Below are positions 24,627 through 51,783 of a stretch of 64,000 bases of DNA, one piece after another. Source of the stretch: Lepidurus packardi (Eukaryota > Arthropoda > Branchiopoda > Notostraca > Triopsidae). Made by a program: the position numbers and the translations under genes. The notes under the pieces were generated by a model. The model was not told the origin of the DNA. It worked only from the letters and a program-made list of their open reading frames with translations, and did no database searches. Numbering within the stretch: the first letter of the stretch is position 1; each line of letters begins with the position of its first letter. The stretch spans positions 5,585,001 through 5,649,000 of the forward strand of contig JAKZAN010000006.1 of the NCBI GenBank assembly GCA_023053545.1. Reading direction: 5' to 3'.

Positions 24627-27089
24627 TTAAGTTTCTAGTTTAGTGACAATTAGTGGCCAAGCTGTCTCCCTTAGGAAAGCTAAAACTGAGATCACAGTAC
24701 CGACTCCTAAGATCAAAAAGGCCGTTTGCAGCTGTATGAGAACAAGAGGACTCTCCGATGGTGCTTCCCCCAAATTGCGCGTTGAAAAGCAGTTAATTCT
24801 GGGAACGTATTTCGTTTCGAAATAGTTGGTTAAACCACCTTCAGTAGCTGACATTACGCTAAATTTTTTTTTTTAAGTTTAGAACGAATATTGAAAACAG
24901 GCTTTAAGTTTCAATAACTTACTTCTTCTGCAAGATCTGCGTAAGTGCTGGAACAGATTTTGATGTGTTCCACCCAGCCATGGCGGGGAAACCCGTTCCT
25001 CGTAATTCGAAAACGGCCATCCTACATTGTTTCGTTGACTGAAAATCGACATAAATCGATTCCTCGGCCATCCGATAACTCTATTTTTTCTGAGATGAAA
25101 AGCACGAAAGCTAAAATTGTAAAAAAAACAAAAAAACTCACAGTTATGAAACCATATCGTCCTCCAATAACCATTTGCACTCCTTCCCGATTAGTTTTCA
25201 CCAGAGATTCGGTGTTTTCGCGAAACAGGTTTCCAATATCTTTGTGTAAACCTGAAGTTGCTGCCTAGGATGACAATAACTGTTTTAGAATTCCATGATC
25301 GTATACAATTTATGGAATAAATGACAAGAAAGTTGTCCGAAAACATATAGCCTTTAATTGCCACGGGTTTCAGCGTACCTTTCGTCACAAAGTCTTCCAA
25401 ACTCTTAATAAGTGGCTGGGGCTGACGTGCAGTAACGAACGAAATTAGAATTGAAGTGTACGAAAATACTATAATAAAGGCTCCAAGGTTCCAAGTTGTA
25501 GCTAGAAAGCGACCTGGTAGGTGTTTAGGGCTAAATCCCCCTGCAAGAAAATGTTAAAATTATTATATTTAAAATTTAGAAATAACACTAAAAAATTATG
25601 GAATACCTTGTCCTGTAACCAGGGATACATTATAAAGCACATCTAACCCTAAATCAGGTTGATTGCCCGACATTCTCGCGACAACCCACATGGAGAGTGA
25701 AACTGATAAAAGGCTTGCAATTACGCAAATCCACACCTAGTAATTTTCAATACTGAATTAGATACTGAAAACTACTGAAAAACTTAGAAAAGGAAGCTAA
25801 ATACTTCAAAACCAAACGGTTTCGCATTTGAGAGTAAGTCATAGACCATCATCGGCGCTGGGATCAAAGCAGCCCAACGACCATTATTAGTTGGCCAGAC
25901 GAAGTCGAAGAAGGGTTGAGCATCGTAAACGTTGGCAAATATGGCAATATCGATTTCCTAAGTTAGAAATATCCTGGTCAGTTTGCTTCCAATGATGGAC
26001 TTGTACAGTTTGGGAGAAATGACCATTCTTTTAAACGATTATTTTTAAATATTCAATTCTTCAAGTCCACAAATGTTCCATCATATTTTCAATCCGTTTG
26101 TAGCGGATAGAAATTATACGTAAATCATAGCACTAGATTAGTATAGAGTAACATTTGTAACCGTACGCCTCGTAATGCCATTCCTGTTAATCCAATGGTG
26201 CTATTGCCCCGAAGGCCAAAAAGACGATCCTCAGGTTCAACAAAGTAGTACCTACACGACAGCATCGTTAGTGCGTTTATAATGTATACGTTATTACAGA
26301 ATTTACTTGAAACCAAAGCTCTTAGCTATTGCTTCAAAAAGGTCGATACTTTTGCCAGTCCATTTCACAATTCCGCCTAATTCCGACCGTATTACAGTTG
26401 GACGTATCTATCAAAAGAAAAGCCAAGTAATTGATGAACGCCTTTGGTTACCAAAAACCTAGTACTTACCTCAGTGGTCCCGGCTACTATTGTTTGCTTT
26501 TTCCATTGACTTCGAGTACAGGTTCCCGAGCTTGCTTGGTACATACTCCTCTTGATACCACGCGAATCTTCAATCAGATTCCGCAAATCTTCTACAACGG
26601 ATTGACGGGGTTTTAGCAGTCTAAAGCTTCTAGAACAAGGTGGTTCAATATTAAGCCACCAAATGAGTGATCCCGTCTCAATTTCTTTTGGCAAACTGTT
26701 CAACTTATCTGTTGAAATTGGCCTGTTTGTTAAGAGAATGAGTTTTGGAACCGCCGTCCTATTTGTATCTGCAATAAAGCCTTCTTTAGATCTAACTTTA
26801 TTCATAAGATTACTCACTGTGACGAGGTCTGATGACATCCGAAGTTATAGCAGGTAAGTTGTACTCCAGTGCTAAATCTCGAACAAGCATTTCTGCCAAC
26901 ATCTGCTGATAGAGTGGCCACTTAGTACAGCCGGCATCGTAAAGAATAACTGCTATTGGGTAAATTAAAGAAAGTTAGACTCTTGTGGATAAGTGAATAA
27001 ATGATAAGTGGATCATTCTCACGTAACTAACCTGGATTTCCTGCCTGGCCGACCGCAATCAGCACGTGTAGTAAAACTATGGTCCTCAT
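24627..27089 (-). CDS. Ionotropic receptor (iGluR-like channel), array copy 1
   Basis: Exons in transcript order: 27089-27032, 26952-26818, 26768-26470, 26407-26307, 26251-26167, 25957-25805, 25736-25607, 25540-25365, 25264-25142, 25080-24923, 24858-24627. Phases agree throughout and give 549 residues. A signal peptide (MRTIVLLHVLIAVGQAG) is followed by a short N-terminal domain to about residue 164. Ligand-binding half S1 (IKWTGKSIDLFEAIA-like text, GMALRGEIDIAIF, FFDFVWP) is at about 165-277, and M1 is at about 278-300. The pore/M2 (TTWNLGAFIIVFSYTSILIS) is at about 335-356, S2 at about 366-505, and M3 (QTAFLILGVGTVISVLAFL) at about 514-533. This is the layout of protostome chemosensory IRs. 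The S1 arginine that grips glutamate in iGluRs is not in its usual place (VYDAQPFFDF), so glutamate is unlikely to be the ligand. The weakest borders are the exon 8 donor (CCC|gtggca) and the NAGNAG acceptor of exon 2. The copy appears intact. Confidence 0.85.
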
Positions 27090-29149: not shown

Positions 29150-31683
29150 TTAAGTTTCTAGTTTAGTGACAATTAGTGTCCAAGCTGTCTCCCTTAGGAA
29201 AGCTAAAATTGAGATCACAGTACCGACTCCTAAGATCAAAAAAGCCGTTTGCAGCTGTATAAGAACAAGAGGACTCTCCGATGGTGCTTCCCCCAAATTG
29301 CGCGTTGAAAAGCAGTTAATTCTGGGAACGTATTTCCTGTCGAAATAGTTGGTTAAACCACCTTCAGTTGCTGACATTACGCTAAATTTTTTTTTTTTAA
29401 GTTTAGAACGAATATTGAAAACAGGCTTTAAGTTTCAATAACTTACTTCTTCTGCAAGATCTGCGTAAGTGCTGGAACAGACTTTGATGTGTTCCACCCA
29501 GCCATGGTGGGGAAACCCGTTCCTAGTAATTCGAAAACGGACATCCTGCATTGTTTCGTTGACTGAAAATCGACATAAATCGATTCCTCGGCCATCCGAT
29601 AACTCTATTTTTTCTGAGATGAAAAGTACGAAAGCTAAAATTGTAAAAAAAAACAACGAAAAAACTCACAGTTATGAAACCATATCGTCCTCCAATAACC
29701 ATTTTCACTCCTTCCCGATTAGTTTTCACGAGAGATTCGGTGTTTTCGCGAAACAGGTTTCCAATATCTTTGTGTAAACCTGAAGTTGCTACCTAGGATG
29801 ACAATAACTGTTTTAGTATTCCATGATCCTATACAATTTATGGAATAAATTACAAGAAAGTTGTCCGAAAACATATAGCCTTTAATTGCCACGGGTTTCA
29901 GCGTACCTTTCGTCACAAAGTCTTCCAAACTTTTAATAAGTGGCTGGGGCTGACGTGCAGTAACGAAGGAAATTAGAATTGAAGTGTACGAAAATACTAT
30001 AATAAAGGCTCCAAGGTTCCAAGTTGTAGCTAGAAACCGACCTGGTAGCTGTTTAGGGCTAAATCCCCCTGCAAGAAAATTTTTAAATTATTATATGTTA
30101 AAATTAGAAATAAAGTTATAAAATTATGCAATACCTTGTCCTGTAACCAGGGATACATTATAAAGCACATCTAACCCTAAATCAGGTTGATTGCCCGACA
30201 TTCTCGCGACAACCCACATGGAGAGTGAAACTGATAAAATGCTTGCAATTACGCATATCCACACCTAGTAGTTTTCAATACTGAAATAGATACTGAAAAA
30301 ATACTGAAAAACGTAGAAAAGAAAGCAAAGTACTTTAGGAAACAAAAATACCTACATCATAACCAAACGGTTTCGCATTTGAGAGTAAGTCATAGACCAT
30401 CATCGGCGCTGGGATCAAAACAGCCCAACGACCATGATTAGTTGGCCAGACGAAGTCGAAGAAGGGTTGAGCATCGTAAATGTTGCCAAATATGGCAATA
30501 TCGATTTCCTAAGTTAGAAATATCCTGGTCAGTTTGCTTCCAGTGATGGACTGTACAGTTTGGGAGAAATGATCATTCTTTTAAGCGATAATTTTTAAAT
30601 ATTCAATTATTCAAGTCCATCAATGCTCCATCATATCTTAAATCAGTTCGTAGCGGATAGAAATTATACATAAATCATAGCTCTAGATTAGTATGGATTA
30701 GCTCTATATCAAAGCTCTAGATTAGTATAGAGTAACATTTGTAACCGTACGCCTCGTAATGCCATCCCTGTTAATCCAATGGTGCTATTGCCCCGATAGC
30801 CAAAAGAACGATCCTCAGGTTCAACAAAGTTATACCTACACGACAACATCTTTAGTGCGGATATAATGAATACATTATTACAGAATTTACTTGAAACCAA
30901 CGCTCTTAGCTATTGCTTCAAAAAGGTCGATATTGGTGCCATTCCATTTCACTATTCTGCCTAATTCCGACCGTATTACAGTTGGACGTATCTATCAAAA
31001 GAAAAGCCAAGTAATTGATGAACACCTTTGGTTACCAAAAACCTAGTACTTACCTCAGTGGTCCCGGCTACTATTGTTTGCTTTTTCCATTGACTTCGAG
31101 TACAGGTTCCCGAGCTTGCTTGGTACATACTCCTCTTGATACCACGCGAATCTTCAATCAGATTCCGCAAATCTTCTACAACGGATTGACGGGGTTTTAG
31201 CAGTCTAAAGCTCCTAGAACAAGGTGGTTCAATATTAAGCCAAAAAATGAGTGATCCCGTCGCAATTTCTTTTGGCAAACTGTTCAAACTGTTCAACTTA
31301 TCTGTTGAAATTGGCCTGTTTGTTAAGAGAATGAGTTTTGAAACCGCCGTCCTATTTGTATCTGCAATAAAACCTTCTTTAGATCTAACTTTATTCATAA
31401 GATTACTCACTTTGACGAGGTCTGATGACATCCAAAGTGAAAGCCGGCAAGTTGTACTCCAATGCTAAATCTCGAACAAGTATTTCTGCCAACATCCGCT
31501 GATAGAGTGGCCACTTAGTACAGCCGGCATCGTAAAGAATTACTGCTACTTGGGTAAATTAAGGAAAGTTAGACTCTTGTGGATAAGTGAATAAGTGATA
31601 AGTGGATCTTTCTCACTTAACTAACCTGGATTTCCTGCCTGGCCGACCGCAATCAGCACGTGTAGTAAAACTATGGTCCTCAT
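29150..31683 (-). CDS. Ionotropic receptor, array copy 2
   Basis: Same eleven-exon plan as copy 1, from the ATG at 31683 to the TAA at 29150-29152. The long exon 3 (within 30976-31431), S1 exons near 30960 and 30830, M1 exon near 30240, pore exon near 29930-30070, S2 exons near 29610-29790 and final M3 exon (29150-29381) are all open. Exon 3 carries a two-codon LN-S duplication (KLNSLNSLPKE) also seen in copy 3. The T-rich intron between exons 9 and 10 is 4 nt longer than in copy 1. This supports it being an intron, since read-through would shift the frame. Domains, topology and expected role (ligand-gated cation channel subunit in sensory dendrites) are as for copy 1. It appears intact. Confidence 0.82.
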
Positions 31684-32741: not shown

Positions 32742-35263
32742 TTAAGTTTCTAGTTTAGTGACAATTAGTGGCCAAGCTGCCTCCCTTAGGAAAGCTAAAA
32801 TTGAGATCACAGTACCGACTCCTAAGATCAAAAACGCCGTTTGCAGCTGTATAAGAACAAGAGGACTCTCCGATGGTGGTTCCCCCAAATTGCGCGTTGA
32901 AAAGCAGTTAATTCTGGGAACGTATTTCCTGTCGAAATAGTTTACTAAACCAGCTTCAACTGCTGACATTACGCTAAAAAAAAATTACAAAAAAAAGTTT
33001 AGAACGAATACTGAAAACAGATTCTAAGTTTCAATAACTTACTTCTTCCGCAAGATCTGCGTAAGTGCTGGAACAGATTTTGATGTGTTCCACCCAGCCG
33101 TGAGTAGGAAACCCGTTCCCTGTAATTCAAGAACGGCCATCCTGCATTGTTTCGTTGACTGAAAATCGAAATAAATCGATTCCTCGGCCATCCGATAACC
33201 CTATTATTTCTGAGATGAAAAGTACGAAAGCTAAAATTGTAAAAAAAAACCGCACAGTTATCAAACCATATCGTCCTCCAATAACCATTTTCACTGCTTC
33301 CCGATTAGTTTTCACGAGAGATTCGGGGTTTTCGCGAAACAGGTTTCCAATATCTTTGTCTAAACCTGAAGTTGCTGTCTAGGATGATAATAACTGTTTT
33401 AGTATTCCATGATCGTATACAATTTATGGAATAAAATTACAAGAAAGTTGACAGAAAACAAATAGCCTTGAAGTGCCACGGGTTTCAGCGTACCTTTCGT
33501 CACAAAGTCTTCCAAACTCTTAATAAGTGGTTGGGGCTGACGTGCAGTAACGAAGGAAATTAGAATTGAAGTGTACGAAAATACTATAATAAAGGCTCCA
33601 AGGTTCCATGTTGTTGCTAGAAAGCGACCTGGTAGCTGTTTAGGGCTAAATCCCCCTGCAAGAAAATGTTAAAATTATTATATTTAAAATTTAGAAATAA
33701 TACTAAAAAATTATGGAATACCTTGTCCTGTAACCAGGGATACATTATAAAGCACATCTAAACCGAAATCGGGTTGACTGCCCGACATTCTCGCGACAAC
33801 CCACATGGAGAGTGAAACTGATAAAATGCTTGCAATTACGCACATCCACACCTAGTATTCTTCAATATGTAAATAGATACTGAAAAATACTTTACGAAAC
33901 AAAAAAAATCTTACATCAAAACCAAACGGTTTCGCATTTGAAAGTAAGTCATAGATGACCATCGGCGCTGGGATCAAAACAGCCCAACGACCATAAATAG
34001 TTGGCCAGACGACGTCGAAAAAGGGTTGAGCATCGTAAACGTTGGAAAATACGGCAATATCGATTTCCTAATTGGGTAGAAATATCCTTTTCAGTTTGCT
34101 TCCAATGATGGACTTTACACGGATGTACAGTTTGGGAGAAATGAGCAATCTTTTAAGCGATAAATTTTAAATATTCAATTCTTCAAGTCCACAAATGCTC
34201 CATCATATTTTAAATCAGTTTGTAGCGGATAGAAATTATACATAAATAATAGCTCTAGATTACTATGGATTAGCTCTAGATTAGTATGGATTAGCTCTAT
34301 ATCATAGCTCTAGATTAGTATAGATTAACATTTGTAACCGTACATCTCGGAATGCCATTCCTGTTAATCCGGTGGTGTTCTTGCCCGGAAAGCCAAAAGA
34401 ATGATCCTCAGGTTCAACAAAGTAATACCTACACGACAACATCGTTAGTGTGTATATAATGTATACTTTATTACAGAATTTACTTGAAACCAATGCTCTT
34501 AGCTATTGATTCAAAAAGGTCGATATTGGTGCCATTCCATTTCACAATTCCGCCAAATTCCGACCGTATTACAAATGGACGTATCTATCAAAAGAAAAGT
34601 CAAGTAATGGTTATACCAAGTAATGGAGTACAAAAACCTAGTACTTACTTCAGTGGTCCCGGCTACTATTGTTTGCGTTTTCCATTGATTTCGAGTACAG
34701 GTTCCCGAGCTTGCTTGGTACATACTCTTCTTGATACCACGCGAATCTTCAATCAGGTTCCGCAAATCTTCTACAACGGATTGACGAGGTTTTCGCAGTC
34801 TAAAGCTCCTAGAACAAGGTGGTTCAATATTAAGCCACCAAATGAGTGATCCCGTCGCAATTTCTTTTGGCAAACTATTCAAACTGTTCAACTTATCTGT
34901 TGAAATTGGCCTGTTTGTTAAGAGAATGAGTTTTGGAACGGCCGTCCTATTTGTATCTGCAATAAAACCTTCTTTAGATCTAACTTTATTAATAAGATTA
35001 CTCACTTTGACGAGGTCTGATGACATCCAAAGTGAAAGCCGGCAAGTTGTACTCCAATGCTAAATCTCGAAGAAGTATTTCTGCCAACATCCGCTGATTG
35101 AGAGGCCACTTAGTACAGCCGGCATCGTAAAGAATAACTGCTACTTGGGTAAATTAAGGAAAGTTCGACTCTTGGTGATAAGTGAATCTTCCTCACTTAA
35201 CTAACCTGGATTTCCTGACTGGCCGACAGCAATCAGCACGTGTAGTAAAACTATGGTCCTCAT
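32742..35263 (-). CDS. Ionotropic receptor, array copy 3
   Basis: ATG at 35263, stop at 32742-32744, same exon plan as copies 1 and 2. S1 is the most diverged of the four: FGGIVKWNGTNIDLFESIA, YFVEPEDHSFGFPGKNTTG and GMAFRD in place of GMALRG. S2 reads MAVLELQGTGFLLTAGWN, and the last exon begins VMSATEAGLVNYFDRKYVP. The changes cluster in the predicted ligand-binding halves, while the pore exon is nearly unchanged. That would fit altered ligand choice, but it is an inference from a few residues. It appears intact and is predicted to be a chemosensory channel subunit. Confidence 0.82.
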
Positions 35264-36322: not shown

Positions 36323-38819
36323 TTAAGTTTCTAGTTTAGTGACAATTAGTGGCCAAGCTGTCTCCCTTAGGAAAGCTAAAACTGAGATCACAGTACCGAG
36401 TCCTAAGATCATAAAAGCCGTTTGCAGCTGTCTAAGAACAAGAGGACTCTCCGATGGTGCTTCCCCCAAATTGCGCGTTGAAAAGCAGTTAATTCTGGGA
36501 ACGTATTTCCTTTCGAAATAGTTGGTTAAACCACCTTCAATAGCTGACATTACGCTAAAAAAATTTTTTTTTAAAGTTTAGAACGAATATTGGAAACAGG
36601 CTTTAAGTTTCAATAATTTACTTCTTCTGCAAGATCTGCGTAAGTGCTGGAACAGATTTTGATGTGTTCCACCCAGATGTGGCTAGGAAATCCTTTCCTT
36701 GTACGGCAATAATGGCCATCCTGCATTGTTTCGTTGACTTAAAATCGAAATAAGTCGATTCCTCGGCCATCCGATAACCCTATTTTTTCTGAGATGAAAA
36801 GTACGAAAGCTAAAATTGTAAAAAAAAAAACAAAAAAACTCACAGTTATGAAACCATATCGTCCTCGAATAACCATTTGCACTGCTTCCCGATTAGTTTT
36901 CACGAGAGATTCGCGGTTCTCGCGAAACAGATTTCCTATATCTTTTTCTATACCTGAAGTTGCCAACTAGGATGACAATAACTGTTTTAGTATTCCATGA
37001 TCGTATCCAATTTATGGAATAAAATTACAAGAAAGATGTTCGAAAATATATAGCCTTTAATTGCCACGGGTTTCAGCGTACCTTTCGTCACAAAGTCTGC
37101 CAAACTCTTAATAAGTGGCTGGGGCTGACGTGCAGTAACGAACGAAATTAGAATTGAAGTGTACGAAAATACTATAATAAAGGCTCCAAGGTTCCATGTT
37201 GTTGCTAGAAAGCGACCTGGTAGCTGTTTAGGGCTAAATCCCCCTGCAAGAAAATTTTTAAATTATTATATTTAAAATTTAGAAATAATATAAAAAAATT
37301 ATGGAATACCTTGTCCTGTAACCAGGGATACATTATAAAGAACATCTAAACCTAAATCGGGTTGACTGCCCGACATTCTCGCGACAACCCACATGGAGAG
37401 TGATACTGATAAAATGCTTGCAATTACGCATATCCACACCTAGTAATTTTAAATACTGAAATAGATACTGAAAAAATACTGAAAAACTTAGAAAAAAAAG
37501 CTACATACTTTACGAAACAAAAAAAAACTTACATCAAAACCAAATGGTTTCGCATTTGAGAGTAAGTCATAGATGACCATCGGCGCTGGGATCAAAACAG
37601 CCCAACGACCATAAATAGTTGGCCAGACGAAGTCGAAATAGGGTTGAGCATCGTAAATGTTGCCAAATATGGCGATATCGATTTCCTAAGTTAGAAATAT
37701 CCTGGTCAGTTTGCTTCCAATAATGGACTTGTACAATTTGGGAGAAATAACCATTCTTTTAAAGATAATTTTTAAATATTCAATTCTTCAAGTCCACAAA
37801 TGCTCCATCATATTTTCAATCAGTTCGTAGCGGATATAAATTATACATAAATCATAGCTCTAGATTAGTATAGATTAACATTTGTAACCGTACGCCTCGT
37901 AATGCCATCCCTGTTAATCCAATGGTGCTATTGCCCCGATAGCCAAAAGAACGATCCTCAGGTTCTACAAAGTAGTACCTACACGACAACATCGTTTGTG
38001 CGTATATAATTTATACTTTATTACAGAATTTACTTGAAACCAATGTTCTTAGCTATTGCTTCAAAAAGGTCGATATTGGTGCCATTCCATTTCACAATTC
38101 CGCCTAATTCCGACCGTATTACAAATGGACGTATCTATCAAAAGAAAAGTCAAGTAATGGATATAACAAGTAATTGAAAAGCCAAGTAATGGAGTACAAA
38201 AACGTAGTACTTACTTCAGTGGTCCCGGCTACTATTGTTTGCTTTTTCCATTGACTTCGAGTACAGGTTCCCGAGCTTGCTTGGTACATACTCCTCTTGA
38301 TACCACGCGAGTCTTCAATCAGATTCCGCAAATCTTCTACAACGGATTGACGGGGTTTTAGCAGTCTAAAGCTCCTAGAGCAAGGTGGTTCAATATTAAG
38401 CCACCAAATGAGTGATCCCGTCTCAATTTCTTTTGGCAAACTGTTCAACTTATCTGTTGAAATTGGCCTGTTTGTTAAGAGAATGAGTTTTGAAACCGCC
38501 GTCTTATTTGTATCTGCAATAAAACCTTCTTTAGAACTAACTTTATTCATAAGATTACTCACTTTGACGAGGTCTGATGACATCCAACGTGAAAGCCGGC
38601 AAGTTGTGCTCCAATGCTAAATCTCGAACAAGTAATTCTGCCAACATCCGCTGATAGAGTGGCCACTTAGTACAGCCGGCATCGTAAAGAATAACTGCTA
38701 CTTGGGTAAATTAAGGAAAGTTCGACTCTTGTGATAAGTGGATCTTTCTCACTTAACTAACCTGGATTTCCTGCCTGGCCGACAGCAATCAGCACGTGTA
38801 GTAAAACTATGGTCCTCAT
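36323..38819 (-). CDS. Ionotropic receptor, array copy 4
   Basis: ATG at 38819, stop at 36323-36325. The exon plan is conserved and the frames are open. Distinctive features are LATSGIEKDIGNLFRENRES at the start of S2, MAIIAVQGKDFLATSGWN further on, and a 6-residue shorter exon 3 (KLNSLPKE without the LNS duplication). The pore/M2 and M3 segments match the other copies. It is the distal copy of the array, and its upstream region ends at about 39165, where similarity to the other copies stops. Predicted role as for the other copies. Confidence 0.82.
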
Positions 38820-40564: not shown

Positions 40565-43500
40565 ATGTCATTCTATTGGGCGCCAATGATGGAAAGGGAT
40601 TGCTTCAGTTTCGACGCAGAAGACGAAGAAGAAAGGGCTAGAATTCGCTTTTCCCACGAACTATTCTTACAATTCGTGCACAATATGACACCAGAGTATA
40701 TGGAGCGTAAATTGCGCGAAGATAAATTTGCCAGCCAAAGATTGGAAGAGCAGCGCAAACACGATTTGGGAACCCGAGCGAGAGAACAAGAGAAAGCCAA
40801 CAAAGAGGCTGCTGAACTTCTGCAACAGGAAGAAATGTTACAGCGTAAGCGAGAAAAGAGCCAGAGGAAGAAACAGAGGAAGAAGAAGGCCAAACAGGAA
40901 GCCAAGAAGCACGTTGAGGCTGTATCCCAGGGGAATCCAGTACCCACCGCCGCAGAAGAAGAAGAAGAGGAGGAATCCGCTTCCAACAATGAAACCGAAA
41001 CTTCCTTAAACGAAGAAATTGATCCCAACTCAGCTTTCGCAGCCAAATCCATGCAGAAAGCCAACATTAAGCCCGAATCAGCTAATTCAGTCAAGCAGGT
41101 ACGTTTTCTGTTCATTGTTGCAGGTACAATATTGCTGCTATTACCTTATTATTACCATTATAACCTTGTTAACCTTACGGAAACATGCCTACTTGGCTTT
41201 TCATTGTTATTGCATTGCTTTTTCATTGTTAGTGCCATTGTTCCAGCATTTGGTTGTTGCTATTGGGCACGTATTAGTCGTTACCAAATTCGCTCCCTAA
41301 CGGCAAGAATGGGCGAAATCCACCATTTTACGTCCGTTTTTTAGTAAGGAAAGCGCTTAATAGAAAACGTACGTAAAATGGTGGATTTCGCCAATGCTTG
41401 CCGCTAGGGAGCGAATTTGGTAAAGACTCTAAATTCTCATGAACTTATTGTCGGGTTTTTAGCCATTTTACCGTAGTTTTGTTTTGATTTTAGTTGGTAC
41501 TTTTGCTGATCGAAATTTCGCTAGTGGCTGTTTACATGTTATGTTAACATTGTCTATTTACTTTGTATGTTTAAGTTGTTTACATTGTTTGTTTACATTG
41601 TTTTGGGATGTTTACATTGTTTGCTTACATTGATTGTTTACAATGGTTGTTTACATTGGATGACGTCATTCTAGGCTCAGCCAATGGATAAGTGCGCGAA
41701 TCTCCGGAGTTTAGCGACTTCGTTAATTAGCGAAGGTTTCTTAATGGAAGCGATTTCGATTTTGAGCCAAGCCATCACCATTTGCCCCACAGATGGGAAG
41801 ATCTACTTAGAGCGGGCGGAATGCTTCTTTAGCTTAGGGAAATTCGAAGAAGCGTTGCAAGACGCGTTGGTTAACGTTGAAAGCAATCCGCGTTCCTCAC
41901 CGGGTTATAAACTGGCTTGTAAAGCTTATTTGTCTCTCAAGCAATACGATAAGGCTCATGAAGCGATTATGAAAGCGAAGGAGATTGAAGGGTACACGGA
42001 GGATGTCCAAGGAGGGATTAAACGGACCGGAGTCTTGAAATTAACCGACATGGGCTTTGATGAGGATAAAGCTGTCAGCGCCATGGAAGGGAAACGGAAT
42101 TTTCAAGTAGTTCTTTAGAGAAAAGTTGGAATAAAAGCAGGAAATTGAAAGACCGATCTTATAGGACGCCTTAGACGAATTATTGGGCGGTTTGGAACAG
42201 TTGAAAGTGGCCAAAAGTACCAAAGTTGAGGAATGGAAAGATTGGAGTGAAGATCAAGAAGAAAACGCGGTTGGATATACGCCACTTAATGGTGCCAAAA
42301 GTAGCAAAGTGGACGAGTGGGATCATTGGAGGGAAGATCAAGAAGAAAGCGCGGATGTCAATACTACCAAAGCTGTAGCACTACCGTCTACTTCAGGGCT
42401 AGAATATCAAGACCGTAGGTACGTTAAACAAGCTGGCCAAAATGTAAACAATGAGATATTTTGCGCGCAAATTAAAGTGCTAATTGAGTAGATACTTGTG
42501 TAAAATTTCCATAAATATCGGATGAATAGTTTCCAAGTATTTTCTAGTTGAACCTGGTTCAGTTCCTAGTGCCGGCAAATATGAGCCGCGAGAGGCGCTG
42601 AAGACTCTTTCGCTTAGAAATAGGCTTACACTCGTAGCGTTATAAGCGCACTTTAACGAAACTATTGCGTTTAAAAAGCTACAAAATTTTGTCAGCCCAC
42701 CGTGACTCCCTGCATCTATTTTGCGTTATCTTGTTGACATTATACTCTAAAATTGTATTTCTTTGTGTACCTTATTTTTGTTTTTAGTGTTTCTGACAGC
42801 TCGCGTGCAGTTTGGGTAGGTTCTATATCTCCTAGCGCGACTTGGAACGATCTGAATGTGCTCTTCCTCACCTGTGGTACCGTTCATAATCTGCACAAGC
42901 CAGTGAATACCAATTATGCGTTCGTAAACTTTACAACGTCTTCCGAAGCTTGTCAAGCGATTGCCAAATTCAATAATTACGAGTTCTTTGGCGAGAAACT
43001 CATCGTTCGTCGTGCACATTCTTCGCAAAAGGCCGGCAAGGCCCCTTTAGTTACTAAGCCAGCCACTCCAAAGAAAACCGAGTAAGAAGTTGATCGTTTT
43101 TCTACCTCAGAATCGACTATTATTTTTTTTAAATTATTTTTTTTTTAGTCCAAGAAATCCTCTTCAGATCAAATCCCTGTACGTGGCCAACGTCATGCCT
43201 AAGATGACCGAAAAGGAGTTACATAACATCTTTTCATCGTAAACATCATTATTATTGTTTACATTATCCTGTCAAATGTTTAAGAAACTACTTAATGTAT
43301 TGTTATAGGTGTGGTCACGTGACGAGCTGCCAGATTTTGCGCGAAAAGAGATGTGCATTTGTGAACTACGCGGCCAGTTATGAAGCCACCAAAGCATTGG
43401 AAACGTTACAAAATTTCCGGCATAAGAATGTGTGTCTCGTTCTCAAGTTTCCAAAGAATACTGAGCATACTGTGATTGGCAATAAAAGGCCCAATATTCC

Positions 43501-43743
43501 TCTTTTTGCTATTCCCGAGCCTAACGTCCAAGAGTAAGCGTTTCCTTGCTCAAAACTTCACGAGTTCTTACTATCTCGACTCCTTAAAAGTGTTCAAACA
43601 GTTTGGGATTTCCATGTTTCAGGGTTATTTCTGTGCCGACTGGCGAATGCGAGTTCTGGCGGAAAGGCGAATGCGTTTTTGGCGGCAAATGCTGGCTTGC
43701 CCACGTGCCCGAGCATCAAGGCGTGGATGCTGCCTGGGATTGA
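40565..43743 (+). CDS. TPR-UBA-RRM-CCCH protein, TTC31-like N-terminus
   Basis: Exons 40565-41098, 41675-42106, 42165-42418, 42788-43081, 43149-43238, 43309-43533, 43623-43743; phases agree and give 649 residues. Order: an acidic/basic coiled-coil-like region (about 60-120, KKQRKKKAKQEAKK), then TPRs (about 183-290, GFLMEAISILSQAITICP and GKFEEALQDALVNVESNP). A UBA-like helix bundle (LTDMGFDEDKAVSAMEGK...ALDELLGG, about 298-332) follows and is split by an intron. Next come RRM1 (AVWVGSI...NYAFVNF, about 413-482) and RRM2 (LYVANV...CAFVNY, about 513-580). A final CCCH finger reads C-x7-C-x5-C-x3-H (CEFWRKGECVFGGKCWLAH). Two tandem WKDWSEDQEE/WDHWREDQEE words lie before RRM1. Role inferred: an RNA-binding adaptor with protein-protein and possible ubiquitin contacts. 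The coiled-coil plus TPR part resembles TTC31, but I know no family with this whole set, so no symbol is given. Confidence 0.8.
41281..41422. repeat. Fold-back element in intron 1 (about 52-bp arms)
   Basis: The left arm 41281-41333 (ttaccaaattcgctccctaa...) and right arm 41371-41422 (...agggagcgaatttggtaa) are near-perfect reverse complements around a ~37-nt loop. Size and structure suit a small fold-back/MITE insertion within the first intron. The flanking intron holds seven CATTGTT words (for example 41113, 41202, 41224, 41236, 41583, 41596, 41615), mostly in a TTTACATTGTTTG-type repeat. Confidence 0.8.
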
Positions 43744-45021
43744 GCTAATTGGCGTCCATTTTGGAATTCATGAAAGTTTGGTTAGCGAAATATAAAGAAG
43801 AAAGACTTTGACTGCCTGTTTTGTACTTGAAGTGTGGGCTTAATCAGCAAATAAGATTAAAATTTAAGTGTTTCTTAACCTTTCCTACTATGGCCTATAT
43901 AAAACCTTGATGTGAACCTTCGTTTATCCTAGAATCTATTACATTGTGCGGCGAATGGGCTTATTTTTACCATCTCGACTATTTACTCAAGCTATCTTTG
44001 TACAAATTACTCTTAATTCATTTCTATTCTCTTAGAAAACATTTCCACTTGAGAATAGTCTCTTAGACAATGGGGAGAGGGTATAATTTCAGGTTTAAAT
44101 GGATCCCGGAAAACACAAAACGTTACTTGTGATGTCATTGCACTCTTCTGACGCTAGCCAAGAATTAGTTCCTGGTAAAACAGATGCCTAACAACCTATT
44201 AAGAGTAGCTGGAATCCTGTACGCCTAAAACTTTCGTAAACTGTCTTGGACGCAAAATGGTAACGAAGGTAAGGTTGAAATCTCGAAGTAATCTCGAAGT
44301 GTATTACATTTATATATTTTCTTCTTTTTCCTTGTCGTGAACGAAATTTATTTACGAAATGTATTCTGGTCTATTGTAGTGAGAGAATTAAATCTTTTCA
44401 AAATCCGGGGAGTAATGTATGATAAATAAGATCTATTTTTGCAAAACAGATGGTTAGAAGCTATTAAAAGTAGTTAGGATACTTGGTAAGCCTAGTAATG
44501 GCATTGTGAATTATCTCAAGAGCGAAGCAATCATTAAAACCTCTAAAACGCACAGAATTTCTGTATTTTCAACAATTTTCCTTGTTGTGACGTCAAGGCA
44601 AGAGTACAATACAACCCTATGCTTTTCATCCAGTTAAATCCTTCCAAACGTAACCATTAGCCCAGACCCAAAACCGAACCCCATAATTTAGTGTTGTCTT
44701 CTATCCGTATTAAACGTGGTGCTCAAAAGGTATTACCCCACGTGACCGTCTTTTACGCAAGCTCATTGGCCGCGTCTTATCCACGAGCGAACTAAACACA
44801 CACGTCCGCCTACCTTCCAGGTTTTCCGTTTTGGCGTTTTAACTTAAAAGATAAACATGCCCACGTGTTATTAAAACGGTGATGATTTCCTTTGTTGGCC
44901 TTCCTATTCAATCTCGGGGAGTCTCAGTCCTCTAAATAAATAACAAAGAAAGTAAGCTCGTTTGCTTAGAAAACGTTCGAAAAACGCCTTGTATTCATCT
45001 TTAATGCGACCTTGACCTTAG
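43744..45021. other. Spacer between the two TPR/RRM genes
   Basis: AT-rich, with no gene seen. It includes a TGACGTCA palindrome at 44588 and E-box-like ccacgtg words near 44738 and 44860. It should contain the 3' UTR of the first gene and the promoter of the second. The ATG at 45022 directly follows a possible acceptor (ccttag), so the second gene may have a further 5' exon in this spacer. Confidence 0.45.
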
Positions 45022-48000
45022 ATGTATGCCAAAGCGGTCATGAAACCGTTATCATTGTCCAAGTCAGCTGTAGATCCTGAACTTCCTACTCATCCTCCAG
45101 TTTTCGACGAGGTACACCTTTCAGTTAACTTTTAATACGTATATAAAAGCTTTATAAACCATCCAGAGTGAATGGAGTGATTTCTAATATTTTACCTGTT
45201 TTAATGTGTATTTTTCTGCCTTTTTCCGCGTTTTACCAGCGTTTGGAACGATACAACAAGTTATGCGACATATGCCAAAACACGATGAGCTTCGCATTAT
45301 GGGCCGAAGCTCGAGCTATCCTGGATAAAGCTGTTGTAAGCGAGCCACGCGAAAGTCGAGCTTTTCTGCTCCGCTCCGAATGCCTCTATGAATTAGGAGA
45401 CTACTTCAATGCCTTCCATGACGCTGATCGAGCTGCATTCTTTAATCTCCATGAAATCCGAGCATTTGCCTGGAGGGGCAAGTGTTTGCTAGCTCTTGGC
45501 GAGCATGAAAAGGCAGAAGAAGATTGGAAGAGAGTCCAAACCGTTTGGGGCAATACACCCGAGGTGCTCGAAGCTCTGAAACGCATCTTTCTATACAAAT
45601 TTGCCGTCTTGAGGATCGAACGAAACGAAGCTGAACGCGCCTGGGCCAAATTTGGCAACTACCAAGTACAATCTTCCTTTCCCTTTTGATTTCTCTAGAG
45701 ATTAAGATGTCTTGGTTGGTTTTAGAAAGCTCTTGATGCGTATTTGAACAAAACCAGCGAAGATGATCAACTGGAAGAGGAAGAAGAAGAAGAAGAAGAA
45801 ATTGATCAAGAAACTAGTGCGGAGGATTTCGTACAAGGAAATAGTGCTGCCGAGGCTCCCAGTCCGGATCCGAGACCAACCACTCCCTGGTAGGTACCTC
45901 GTACTGTGTTTGGATTAAATTAGTTAGTTGTTAGTAAAAAAAATTTTTTAATTTTTAAAAAATTTAATTTTTCTATCTTTTTTTTTGTTGTTTTTTTTAG
46001 TGATTTAAAAGCGAATAGTGCAGTTTGGGTAGGAAACGTGTACGAACACATCAGCGAAGAAGAATTACTCCAGATTTTTGGAAAGTATGTGAGAAGATTG
46101 GAAATAAGAAGAATTTAGAAAATTTTTTAAAATTGTAAAAATTCTTTTTAGACATGGTCGGATTGTTAACTACCGCGTGAATTACAACAGCAAATACGCG
46201 TTTATTAACTACGCAGGTTTGGAAGCTGCCGAAGTCATTGTGCGCAAACTCAACGGATTCCGCTACAAAGGAATCTCATTTTCTGTTAACGGAGTCGCCC
46301 CGGAACGTAAACAGTCGTAAGTTTCTTATTTCCCTTAGAAAATCTCGTTTAAATCATACGGTGTTATGTTTAAGTTATTATTCAATGTATTAAATTAGTA
46401 AAAACCTAAAAGTATGTGTACCAAAAGTGGGATCTTTAAGTTTAAAACGATGTTTTCATGCAGGTACTTTGATATGGTGCGATCCAAAACTATCTGGGTG
46501 GGCAACTTACCCCCCAGTTGCTCAACAAGCGAAGTGACCAACTTATTCTCCAAGTAAACAGGTTCCTTCAATCGTTAAGAAAGAAAAATAGATTATCTTT
46601 GCATTATTTTTGATCATTTTTTACTATTTTTGGATTGCTTTTAATTATTTTTGGACAACAAAGGTATGGGAACATAGTCGACTGTCGAATCTTGGCAGAA
46701 GCTTGCTGTGGGTTTGTGGATTATTCCAATATCGACGAAGCGGCTGCAGCGATGAAGAATTTAAGTGGCATCGAACTTTGTTCTTATTTGCTCAAAATTA
46801 AGTACGCCATGGACAACGGCGGAGTGATAAGCTCGGGAAATTTGAAAGAGTAAAATGAGGCTACAAGCTTTTTCAAAAATTGTTTAGTTGTCTCTGAATT
46901 CTTTTTTTTTATAGTCCAATTAATCCTGGAAAGTACGTAAGCCTTTTTGTGGGCAATCTCTGTGATAGCGTGAGCAAATCAGATTTGGGTGCCTTGTTCT
47001 CCAAGTACGTTAGAAAAATCGTTCTTTGCATTAGTTGAAAGTATTGAAGACAATTAAGTTAAGACAATAGCTTTAATACGACGCAAATGTTGTGAAGCTT
47101 TTGAAGGATATTTTTGTTGGTTTTCGGATTAGGTGTGGGAAGATCCGAAGCATTCGTTTAGTCGAGAAGAAAAACTTTGCCTTTATTATATATTTCCAAG
47201 CCAGTCATGCTGCCAAGGCTATGCAAACTTTACAAGCGTACAAACTCAAGGGATCCAAGTTGTGCCTCAGCTTTAATCCGTGTTGCGAATACGAAATTAA
47301 GGCGGAAACATCCCCGAAATCAAAGGGAACGGAAACCTTAGCAGCCATGGTGCCTTGCAATGGCGTCAGACCCAAGAAAACGGAAGAGTCGAAAACCAAA
47401 TCCGAAAACGGCAAGAAAGAATCGAAATACTCCGCCAAAACCAAGTAAAACTAGACAAAACGCCCAGTTTTTAGCCTATTTTAAGCTTGTAATCGATATT
47501 TAGTGCCTTTTGCGCATTGTAATCGATTACTAAGCTACTTCAGCTCCCCATTTTTAGTATACTTTAAGCTCGTAATCGATGTATAGTGCCTTTTCTAATT
47601 GTAAACAATATGAACGCCATAGCATAGAACGATTTACCGTTGATGAGTTGTAATCGATTATTAAGCTATTTCAAATCGAACGTTACCTTAGCACTTCTAT
47701 TGTGAACATTAGCATTACAAACAGTTAAGATTTAGTATCGGCATTTAGTGATATTTTGATTCGATTATTAATCGATTACTTTGTTCATGTCGTTCAATAC
47801 GTTTACAAAGCTTACCTTGTTATAATGAATGAATTGAAATCTAGTGTAAGAAAATATAATCCATTATTCATTCTATATCCTTGCTACTATTATTATGATT
47901 GTTATCGATTTAAGCATGCATTATTAATCGATTTCTTGGTATTTGAATTGTGTAACGGTTTTGAGTGGCGTTGTTGATTATTTCTCTAGTTTAATCGGTT

Positions 48001-48383
48001 TGTAGTTGGTATTGTAACTAAAATGGAGTTATTTCATTGCAGTCCTTCTAACCCTGATAAGTTTACGAGGATTTTTATCGGCAACATTGATACGAGCAAG
48101 ACTAGCGATAAACAACTCCGTTCGGTGTTCGCCAAGTAAACATCTCCTTGTTCTCGATCATTTTAGATATCTTCTAAGAGGTCATTTCTGTTTTAGAACT
48201 GGGAAAATCGCAGAATTCTTTACTATTCCTGGTCGAGGCTTCGGTTTCGTAGAATATACTTGTGCAGAAAGTGCAACAAAGGCCATGCAAACTTTACAAC
48301 ACTACGAATGCTTCGGCTCCAAATTGAATCTCCAATTCGCCTTCAAAGATCGTCTCCAACCTGTCAAACGTGGGCGAAAGTAA
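45022..48383 (+). CDS. TPR protein with four RRM domains, paralogue of the upstream gene
   Basis: Exons 45022-45111, 45240-45665, 45726-45889, 46001-46084, 46152-46316, 46464-46553, 46664-46849, 46915-47004, 47133-47444, 48043-48135, 48197-48383; 628 residues with consistent phases. TPR-like helices (about 31-140, ALWAEARAILDKAVVSEP) are followed by a degenerate UBA-like stretch (AWAKFGNYQKALDAYL) and a run of nine acidic residues. Then come four RRMs with RNP2/RNP1 pairs VWVGNV/YAFINY, IWVGNL/CGFVDY, LFVGNL/FAFIIY and IFIGNI/FGFVEY. The protein ends in a basic RGRK tail. Each RRM is built from two exons cut at the same place (after the first helix, LF.K) in phase 2, and the inter-RRM borders are also phase 2. 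It shares TPR-RRM order with its neighbour but lacks the CCCH finger. Inferred role: single-stranded RNA binding with a TPR protein dock. No named family assigned. Confidence 0.8.
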
Positions 48384-50554: not shown

Positions 50555-51783
50555 ATGAAAAGCAAGCGATTCCTTGTGACAGGCGGTGGAGGTTTTGTGG
50601 GATTTCATGTGGGGCTAGCACTGTACGAAGCAGGCCACCAGGTCACGCTATTTGACGTCAAGAAGCCCCATCCAGAATGGGAAGAAGACCTGATACGTTC
50701 GGGGAACAGCAACAAAGGTTCGTGGTCATTTCGGTTGGGCGATATTCGCCGGAAAGATGAGTTGAGTCAAGCCTTCCGTGGACAAGACTGCGTCATTCAT
50801 ACGGGTAAGTAGTGACCAAGTATGTAAACGCAAGCTGTGTTGATGGAACGAAGCAAATTCCTTAGAAGAAGTTTATGTTATGAGAAATTCCAGATGAGTT
50901 TAAAGACGCATTTCACTCATTCGCAGCTTCTTACGGGCTGTCAGGGCGAGACCAAATGCGACCTGCTTGGAACCTGACGGAAGAGATCAACGTCCAGGGA
51001 ACTAAAAACGTAATCGAGTCCTGTTGCGAACAAAACGTACGCGCTCTGGTGTACACCAGCACTGTCAACGTGATCTACGGCGGGAAGAAGATCATAAACG
51101 GGGATGAAAGCATGCCTTACTACCCTTTACACTTACACGGGGATCACTACTCGCGCACCAAGTCTATAGCTGAGCAGATGGTACTTCTATGCAATGGAAA
51201 GACTACCACGGATGGCACAGTACTCACGACATGTGCTTTACGCTTATCCGGGGTGATCGGACCGAAGGACCAACGCGTCCTACCCCGAGTTGTATGGGCC
51301 GTCGAAGCAGGCTTAATGCGCTTCAACTACTTTGATGAAGATGGCGCTCAGGTCCAATTCTGCCACATTCGGAACGTAGTTCAAGCTCATTTGAAAGCTG
51401 CTTTCAAACTATTGGACGATGATTCCAGTAAGGTGGTTGCGGGACAAGCCTACTTCATAGCCGATGGACCTCACAGCAATAATTTGGAATACTTTCGTCC
51501 AATATTCGACGATTTGGGGCAACCTTTCCCTACAAAAACGCTCCCTCTTTGGCTTATGTGGGTAATTGTTTACGTAATTGAATTCGTGTACCTAGTTTTG
51601 TACAAGTTCTATGACTTCACACCATTTATGACCAGAACCGAGCTTCTGAAGACAGGCATTACGCACTTCTTTAGTATAGAAAAGGCTCGAGAGCACTTGG
51701 ACTATCAGCCAATTAAGCCTAACGATCTAGAAGACGTGGTACAAAGCATTGCTCAGCATAAAAAGCGAATGAGAAAAGAATAA
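50555..51783 (+). CDS. SDR42E1: Extended short-chain dehydrogenase/reductase, SDR42E1 type
   Basis: Two exons (50555-50804 and 50927-51783, phase 1) code for 368 residues, close to the usual length of about 390. The N-terminal Rossmann motif is TGGGGFVG (residues 9-16). An acidic residue after beta-2 (TLFDVKK) favours NAD(H), and LGDIRRKDEL is the adenine-ring loop. The catalytic TST near 127-129 is followed by YxxxK at Y158/K162 (YSRTK). The C-terminal third has a hydrophobic segment (LWLMWVIVYVIEFVYLVLY, about 282-300), as in the 3-beta-HSD/SDR42E group, which is membrane associated. Substrate in vivo is not deducible. Family members are linked to sterol/steroid-like redox chemistry. It is complete, with no oddities; the intron falls after the VIHTA strand. 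Confidence 0.9.

What the first reader, a model, noticed from the sequence alone, without database searches (positions are those of the whole stretch)
40565..48383. Two adjacent genes combine TPR, UBA-like, several RRMs and (in one) a CCCH finger
Gene 1 is coiled coil-TPR-UBA-RRM-RRM-CCCH; gene 2 is TPR-acidic-RRM x4. The N-terminal part recalls TTC31, but RRMs plus CCCH after a TPR-UBA module is not an arrangement I know. It could be a lineage-specific RNA-regulatory family linking RNA binding to a chaperone or ubiquitin dock. This is my best candidate for an undescribed system in the window.
Basis: partly seen in the sequence, partly recalled or inferred. Interest (0 to 1): 0.75.

Follow-up and report, generated by a model that had tools for sequence, protein, structure and literature searches.

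The report
TPR–UBA–RRM–CCCH RNA-binding gene family
Two neighbouring genes in a small animal genome encode proteins that join RNA-binding parts to protein-docking and ubiquitin-docking parts; they belong to a family of at least four genes that mixes these parts, and the full combination matches no described family we could find, though relatives in other animals could not be searched.

Summary
With consensus splice sites, gene 1 (40565-43743, 649 aa) reads basic helix–TPR–UBA–RRM–RRM–CCCH and gene 2 (45022-48383, 628 aa) reads TPR–UBA remnant–acidic–RRM×4. The UBA and gene 1's CCCH fall below Pfam cut-offs. A profile of the three UBA copies matches 11 PDB sequences, each weakly, all from proteins with UBA domains; the CCCH profile's best hit is RBM22. 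The genome holds at least two more members: TPR–RRM–RRM–CCCH on C1 and UBA–RRM×5 on C2. Three genes share one phase-0 intron inside the UBA and 11 of 13 RRMs share one phase-2 intron. The chaperone-dock idea fails: none of five carboxylate-clamp residues is kept in any of three TPRs. TTC31, as described in print, shares only the coil–TPR order. Best reading: an RNA-binding adaptor in which RRMs and CCCH choose RNA while TPR and, in gene 1, UBA recruit proteins. Anatomy shown; mechanism inferred. No animal protein database was available, so 'lineage-specific' stays open. New variant of a known kind; interest 0.4.

The parts
40565..43743 (+). Gene 1, 7 exons: 40565-41098, 41675-42106, 42165-42418, 42788-43081, 43149-43238, 43309-43533, 43623-43743 (stop included); 649 aa; TPR-UBA-RRM-RRM-CCCH
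   Evidence: splice-consistent assembly; Pfam
40691..40924 (+).
   Evidence: composition; no coiled-coil program was run
41696..42016 (+). Gene 1 TPR domain, residues 186-292
   Evidence: Pfam TPR_1 28.1 bits; ungapped match to HOP TPR1 and TPR2B; clamp residues absent
42032..42200 (+). Gene 1 UBA domain, residues 298-334, split by a phase-0 intron (42107-42164); MGF loop and C-terminal LL present
   Evidence: Pfam UBA 18.6 bits, E 0.0016, below cut-off; PDB profile hits
42210..42353 (+). Gene 1 linker with two copies of a 20-residue Trp/acidic motif (AKSTKVEEWKDWSEDQEENA 42210-42269, AKSSKVDEWDHWREDQEESA 42294-42353)
   Evidence: read in the translation; not seen by eye in the other three members
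42801..43016 (+). Gene 1 RRM1 (RNP2 VWVGSI, RNP1 TNYAFVNF), in one exon
   Evidence: Pfam RRM_1; alignment A5
43168..43453 (+). Gene 1 RRM2 (RNP2 LYVANV, RNP1 KRCAFVNY), split by phase-2 intron 43239-43308
   Evidence: Pfam; A3 and A5; intron
43648..43704 (+). Gene 1 CCCH finger C-x7-C-x5-C-x3-H (CEFWRKGECVFGGKCWLAH)
   Evidence: Pfam zf-CCCH 17.7 bits, below cut-off; profile with the C1 copy hits RBM22 first
45022..48383 (+). Gene 2, 11 exons: 45022-45111, 45240-45665, 45726-45889, 46001-46084, 46152-46316, 46464-46553, 46664-46849, 46915-47004, 47133-47444, 48043-48135, 48197-48383 (stop included); 628 aa
   Evidence: splice-consistent assembly; Pfam
45252..45587 (+). Gene 2 TPR domain, residues 35-146
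   Evidence: Pfam TPR_1 E 7e-5, below cut-off; alignment with gene 1, 24% identity
45567..45746 (+). Gene 2 UBA remnant, about residues 140-179, split by phase-0 intron 45666-45725; MGF loop lost
   Evidence: alignment A2; shared intron; no Pfam UBA hit on its own
45756..45830 (+). Gene 2 acidic stretch, residues 183-207
   Evidence: translation
46014..46296 (+). Gene 2 RRM1, internal phase-2 intron
   Evidence: Pfam
46483..46808 (+). Gene 2 RRM2, internal phase-2 intron
   Evidence: Pfam
46934..47277 (+). Gene 2 RRM3, internal phase-2 intron
   Evidence: Pfam
48062..48341 (+). Gene 2 RRM4, internal phase-2 intron; reached over a 598-base intron
   Evidence: Pfam

Best explanation
Genes 1 and 2 are divergent tandem members of a family of at least four genes built from one ancestral TPR–UBA–RRM–RRM–CCCH-type RNA-binding adaptor. 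Shown by sequence: the domains (UBA and gene 1 CCCH by weak but concordant matches), the shared introns, the further members. Inferred: that the full order is ancestral; that the RRMs, with the CCCH finger where present, bind single-stranded RNA; that the TPR binds a partner protein but not Hsp70/Hsp90 tails; that the UBA of gene 1 (and perhaps of the C2 copy) docks ubiquitin or a ubiquitylated protein. Gene 1 would then link chosen RNAs to ubiquitin-marked factors, for instance in RNA turnover or RNP remodelling. Gene 2, with a decayed UBA, no CCCH and extra RRMs, would be a plainer multi-RRM scaffold. The family would have diversified by duplicating and dropping exon modules.
For: Intact gene models. 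Pfam RRM, TPR, CCCH and UBA matches. UBA profile: 11 of 11 PDB sequences at E<=10 come from UBA proteins (8 different molecules, as 4 of the 11 are Dsk2; best E 0.024). CCCH profile: RBM22 first, CPSF4 and tristetraprolin among the top seven of 36. Further members: C1:8975584-8976871 TPR-RRM-RRM-CCCH, 46% identical to gene 1 over RRM2-CCCH, and C2:10829263-10832134 UBA-RRM×5. Shared phase-0 intron in the UBA in 3 of 3 genes that have it; a phase-2 intron at the same RRM place in 11 of 13 RRMs; all 25 introns from the one before the first RRM onward are phase 2 in the four genes. RRM tree with 21 background RRMs of the same genome: the family label needs 2 changes against 10.6 in shuffles, 0 of 500 shuffles as low; one clade not rejected, p-AU 0.464. 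Aromatic RNP2/RNP1 positions (positions recalled) filled in the first RRM of all four genes.
Against: No structure model was obtained; no expression, RNA-binding or ubiquitin-binding data. UBA and gene 1 CCCH are below Pfam cut-offs, no UBA hit is significant alone, and the C1 and gene 2 TPRs are below Pfam cut-offs. RNP1 position 3 is Cys or Ser in 6 of 13 RRMs (gene 1 RRM2 included) and Arg in a seventh, C2 RRM2, whose RNP2 is degenerate too, so some RRMs may not bind RNA. In the tree the 13 RRMs form a single group in only 2% of bootstrap trees; C1 RRM1 and gene 2 RRM4 fall on the background side of a weak branch; the background rows are the best-scoring RRM_1 matches, which favours a split between canonical and divergent RRMs. 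How common the RRM intron or phase 2 is among unrelated RRM genes of this genome was not measured.
Confidence: 0.5

Rival explanations
1. The TPR is an Hsp70/Hsp90 dock, so the protein is an RNA-binding co-chaperone.
For: STIP1/HOP, DNAJC3, Hip and TOM70 are among the best natural TPR matches.
Against: At the five clamp positions HOP TPR1 has K,N,N,K,R; gene 1 has R,T,E,P,L, gene 2 C,Q,L,R,W, C1 L,L,I,L,H: 0 of 5 identical in each, with one conservative K-to-R change in gene 1 and one in gene 2. Gene 2 and C1 were mapped through alignment A1 (24% and 15% identity to gene 1), so their register is less sure. Clamp defined in passages of PMC13153604 and PMC4427203; HOP TPR1 numbering recalled.
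Confidence: 0.07
2. The UBA is a structural or protein-binding helix bundle that does not bind ubiquitin, and the protein is a plain RNP scaffold.
For: TNRC6C is among the UBA profile hits (that GW182-type UBAs need not bind ubiquitin is recalled). Gene 2 has lost the MGF loop and C1 lacks the segment.
Against: Gene 1 keeps MGF and LL, the usual ubiquitin-contact features (recalled), and C2 keeps VGF and LL.
Confidence: 0.35
3. This is a known orthologous animal family (for instance a TTC31-type or otherwise annotated gene with the same full order), only unfamiliar to the reader and not in the papers searched.
For: TTC31 has a coiled coil before three TPRs (PMC7279152 passages). Invertebrate orthologues could not be searched.
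Against: Human TTC31 is described as disordered after the last TPR, with no UBA, RRM or CCCH mentioned. Open-licence literature searches found no such order.
Confidence: 0.35
4. A derivative of the splicing factor RBM22/Cwc2 (CCCH plus RRM), working in the spliceosome.
For: RBM22 is the top PDB hit of the CCCH profile and among the hits of the RRM2-CCCH profile (E 2.2e-9).
Against: Order is RRM then CCCH; in the RBM22 chains the CCCH match precedes the RRM match (146-166 and 207-269 in 6qdv_M). PABP, ELAV, Sex-lethal, CELF and hnRNP A1 RRMs score better. TPR and UBA are foreign to RBM22 (recalled).
Confidence: 0.1

Closest known systems
TTC31 (human, 519 aa)
   Same: coiled coil followed by three TPRs (PMC7279152, passages)
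   Different: described with a disordered end after the TPRs; no UBA, RRM or CCCH mentioned; sequence not compared here
RBM22/Cwc2
   Same: one CCCH of the CxFWxKGxC type and a short-loop RRM
   Different: CCCH precedes the RRM; no TPR or UBA (recalled)
STIP1/HOP and other carboxylate-clamp TPR proteins
   Same: TPR domain, ungapped alignment over 100 residues of HOP TPR1
   Different: clamp residues absent; no RNA-binding domains in HOP (recalled)
TNRC6/GW182
   Same: UBA and RRM in one protein (recalled; TNRC6C is a hit of the UBA profile)
   Different: no GW or WG dipeptide in gene 1; TPR and CCCH absent from GW182 (recalled)
ZC3H7A/B
   Same: TPR plus CCCH fingers (recalled)
   Different: several fingers, no RRM or UBA (recalled; not tested)

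Membership tests
RRM proteins | RRM_1 above Pfam cut-off with RNP1/RNP2 | tested here: met
   84.6 and 187.3 bits vs 20.7; RNP motifs in alignment A5
TPR proteins | TPR Pfam match over cut-off | tested here: met
   gene 1 TPR_1 28.1 vs 27.8, TPR_19 27.4 vs 25; gene 2 and C1 below cut-offs
UBA domain | Pfam UBA cut-off | tested here: not met
   18.6 (gene 1) and 13.8 (C2) vs 22.4 bits as isolated segments; no UBA hit for gene 2
UBA domain | profile similarity to solved UBA domains | tested here: met
   11 of 11 PDB sequences matched come from UBA proteins, best E 0.024, none significant alone
UBA domain | ubiquitin binding | not testable with these tools
   MGF and LL present in gene 1, MGF lost in gene 2
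CCCH zinc fingers | C-x7/8-C-x5-C-x3-H above Pfam cut-off | tested here: inconclusive
   spacing met; gene 1 17.7 vs 20.5, its C1 relative 25.0 vs 20.5
Hsp70/Hsp90 carboxylate-clamp TPR | K, N, N, K, R clamp | tested here: not met
   0 of 5 identical in each of three TPRs
TTC31 | coiled coil then three TPRs, nothing folded after | tested here: not met
   UBA, two RRMs and CCCH follow the TPR; TTC31 anatomy
TTC31 | orthology by sequence | not testable with these tools
   no animal protein collection held
RBM22/Cwc2 | CCCH before RRM | tested here: not met
   CCCH is C-terminal to both RRMs
TNRC6/GW182 | GW/WG repeats | tested here: not met
   0 GW and 0 WG in gene 1; gene 2 not counted
ZC3H7A/B | TPR with several CCCH fingers | not tested
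   architecture recalled only

The most novel reading that the evidence does not exclude
A modular, lineage-restricted family of ubiquitin-reading RNA regulators. An ancestral TPR-UBA-RRM-RRM-CCCH gene was taken apart and extended, by phase-2 exon modules, into at least four paralogues, so that RNA choice (number and type of RRM, CCCH) and protein docking (TPR, UBA, a repeated Trp/acidic motif in gene 1) vary separately from gene to gene.
Probability: 0.2. Interest if true: 0.6.

Novelty: new variant of a known kind. Interest (0 to 1): 0.4.

Why it matters
Joining a ubiquitin-type dock and a TPR to RRM-RRM-CCCH in one protein would couple RNA choice to ubiquitin signals directly. Four paralogues in one genome with modules gained and lost make a natural test of which module does what. 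If plain relatives are found across animals, it reduces to a poorly annotated RNA-binding family.

Tried and rejected
Chaperone dock: rejected on clamp residues. TPR-only matches on C318 and C138: not counted as family, as a profile of the family RRMs finds no RRM in the 9.9 kb loci around them (L024, L025). Relatives in bacterial and archaeal genomes: gene 2 only was tried; 5 stretches matched a pattern, 0 confirmed. Viral collections were not scanned. Weak RRM matches elsewhere in the genome (C4 around 8.25 Mb, C1 around 8.68 Mb, C3 around 8.72 Mb and others) were taken as ordinary RRM genes and not modelled, so a more divergent member could have been missed. The first RRM tree read 11 minus-strand background rows on the wrong strand and is discarded; one search replaces it. 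In one search, 21 of the 30 background loci were used; 9 were dropped beforehand (6 with a stop inside the match, 3 with the shortest matches). The isolated gene 1 CCCH piece typed lacks one residue well outside the finger (a typing slip). Papers on ZC3H7 and TTC31 were listed and mostly not opened.
Full report
What was checked. The window is part of contig C5 of an unnamed 108.6 Mb genome in 344 contigs.

Gene models. Gene 1 assembles from 7 exons into 649 aa and gene 2 from 11 exons into 628 aa. 16 of 16 introns of the pair are GT-AG, and exon G+C exceeds intron G+C in both genes. The C1 relative uses one GC-AG intron. The last two exons of gene 2 (RRM4) lie beyond a 598-base intron, and two other readings exist: the stop at 47446-47448, or a separate start at an in-frame ATG at 48023. 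The linker before the last-type RRMs, [T/K]^[N/D]-x-x-N-P with a phase-2 intron at ^, recurs in gene 1 (PKKT^DPRNP), gene 2 (GNLK^DPINP and SAKT^NPSNP), C1 (EALT^NPKNP) and C2 (QYKT^DTRNP), which favours RRM4 being part of gene 2.

Domains. Pfam finds RRM_1 twice in gene 1 and four times in gene 2, and TPR in both, over a TPR cut-off only in gene 1. The UBA and the gene 1 CCCH score below Pfam's cut-offs. The UBA was therefore tested in another way: an alignment of the gene 1, gene 2 and C2 segments, searched as a profile against 177,635 PDB sequences, returned 11 sequences at E<=10 (Dsk2 four times, TNRC6C, a ubiquitin-conjugating enzyme, USP13, TDRD3, a UBA/UBX protein, USP5, RAD23A). That the matched chains are UBA domains is recalled for most of them. 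No hit is significant by itself (best E 0.024); the agreement of all of them is the evidence. The CCCH profile (gene 1 and C1) matches 36 sequences: RBM22 is first, CPSF4 and tristetraprolin are within the top seven (E 0.0003-0.0009), and a few hits such as protein G and a defensin are not fingers.

Family. Protein searches of the genome with all four proteins join four loci: genes 1 and 2; C1:8975584-8976871 (364 aa, TPR-RRM-RRM-CCCH, no UBA; its TPR is below Pfam cut-offs); and C2:10829263-10832134 (706 aa, Ser/Asp-rich start, UBA, five RRMs and, by eye, a decayed piece of a sixth). The C1 copy matches gene 1's RRM2-CCCH module at 46% identity. Counts are lower bounds, as the search scores only the best candidates. 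The UBA carries one phase-0 intron at the same codon in all three genes that have it. Of the 13 RRMs, 11 carry a phase-2 intron at the same place; gene 1 RRM1 and C1 RRM1 lack it. All 25 introns from the one before the first RRM onward, in the four genes together, are phase 2. How frequent this is in unrelated RRM genes was not measured. In a tree with 21 other RRMs of this genome the family label is strongly clustered (2 changes; 10.6 in shuffles), but single origin is neither shown nor rejected (p-AU 0.464; 2% of bootstrap trees), two family RRMs fall on the other side of a weak branch, and the background is made of the best-scoring, canonical RRMs. Codon position 3 is the least conserved in the four comparisons made: 0.41 for RRM2-CCCH of gene 1 and C1, 0.27-0.28 for the TPR exons.

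How it may work. RRM: the first RRM of each gene has the aromatic RNP residues; six of 13 RRMs have Cys or Ser at RNP1 position 3, and C2 RRM2 has Arg there and a degenerate RNP2 (positions recalled), so binding strength may differ within each protein. TPR: it aligns without gaps to HOP TPR1 and TPR2B, yet the clamp K, N, N, K, R reads R,T,E,P,L in gene 1, C,Q,L,R,W in gene 2 and L,L,I,L,H in C1. The clamp was read in passages of PMC13153604 and PMC4427203, which give Tah1 numbering; the HOP TPR1 numbering is recalled and agrees with the HOP letters. An Hsp70/Hsp90 dock is therefore unlikely. UBA: gene 1 keeps MGF and LL. Gene 1 also has, between UBA and RRM1, a Trp/acidic motif in two copies (VEEWKDWSEDQEE, VDEWDHWREDQEE), a possible short docking motif; no class is claimed. 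Together this suggests an RNA-binding adaptor that brings RNA to a TPR partner and, for gene 1, to ubiquitin. All binding steps are inferred. No structure model could be made.

Comparison with the known. Passages of PMC7279152 describe human TTC31 as coiled coil 147-197, TPRs 305-406 and disorder at 82-310 and 399-519 of 519 residues. Searches for the domain words together gave one paper on dinoflagellates (passages: not relevant), nine listings that looked unrelated, none and one on domain networks (listing only). A survey of mouse and human CCCH genes, PMC2478707, was searched for RRM, TPR and UBA: none of these words occurs in its main text, so it does not help either way. These searches cover only open-licence PMC papers. 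No collection of animal proteins was available, so a plain orthologue elsewhere is the most important open rival. Confidences of the explanations overlap, as they are not exclusive.

Verdict. The chaperone reading fails and the ubiquitin reading stays possible. I file it as a new variant of a known kind, a multidomain RNA-binding adaptor, with interest 0.4.

Noticed in passing
window 26392-26844, 30976-31464, 34511-35059, 38119-38616 (minus strand): Four ORFs of 150-182 aa, 92-97% identical over the 129-149 residues aligned, 3.5-4.6 kb apart, just upstream of gene 1; the third, the only one scanned, has no Pfam match. Unknown gene or element array.
   Followed up: partly
window 42210-42353: Trp/acidic 20-residue motif in two copies in gene 1's UBA-RRM linker, not seen by eye in the three relatives.
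   Followed up: no
window 50884-51783 +: 3-beta hydroxysteroid dehydrogenase/epimerase-type ORF.
   Followed up: no
L022 4844-4916: GC-AG intron in the C1 relative.
   Followed up: no
G000 contig C3, about 0.4-2.8 Mb: Dense cluster of Chitin_bind_4 cuticle-type genes.
   Followed up: no
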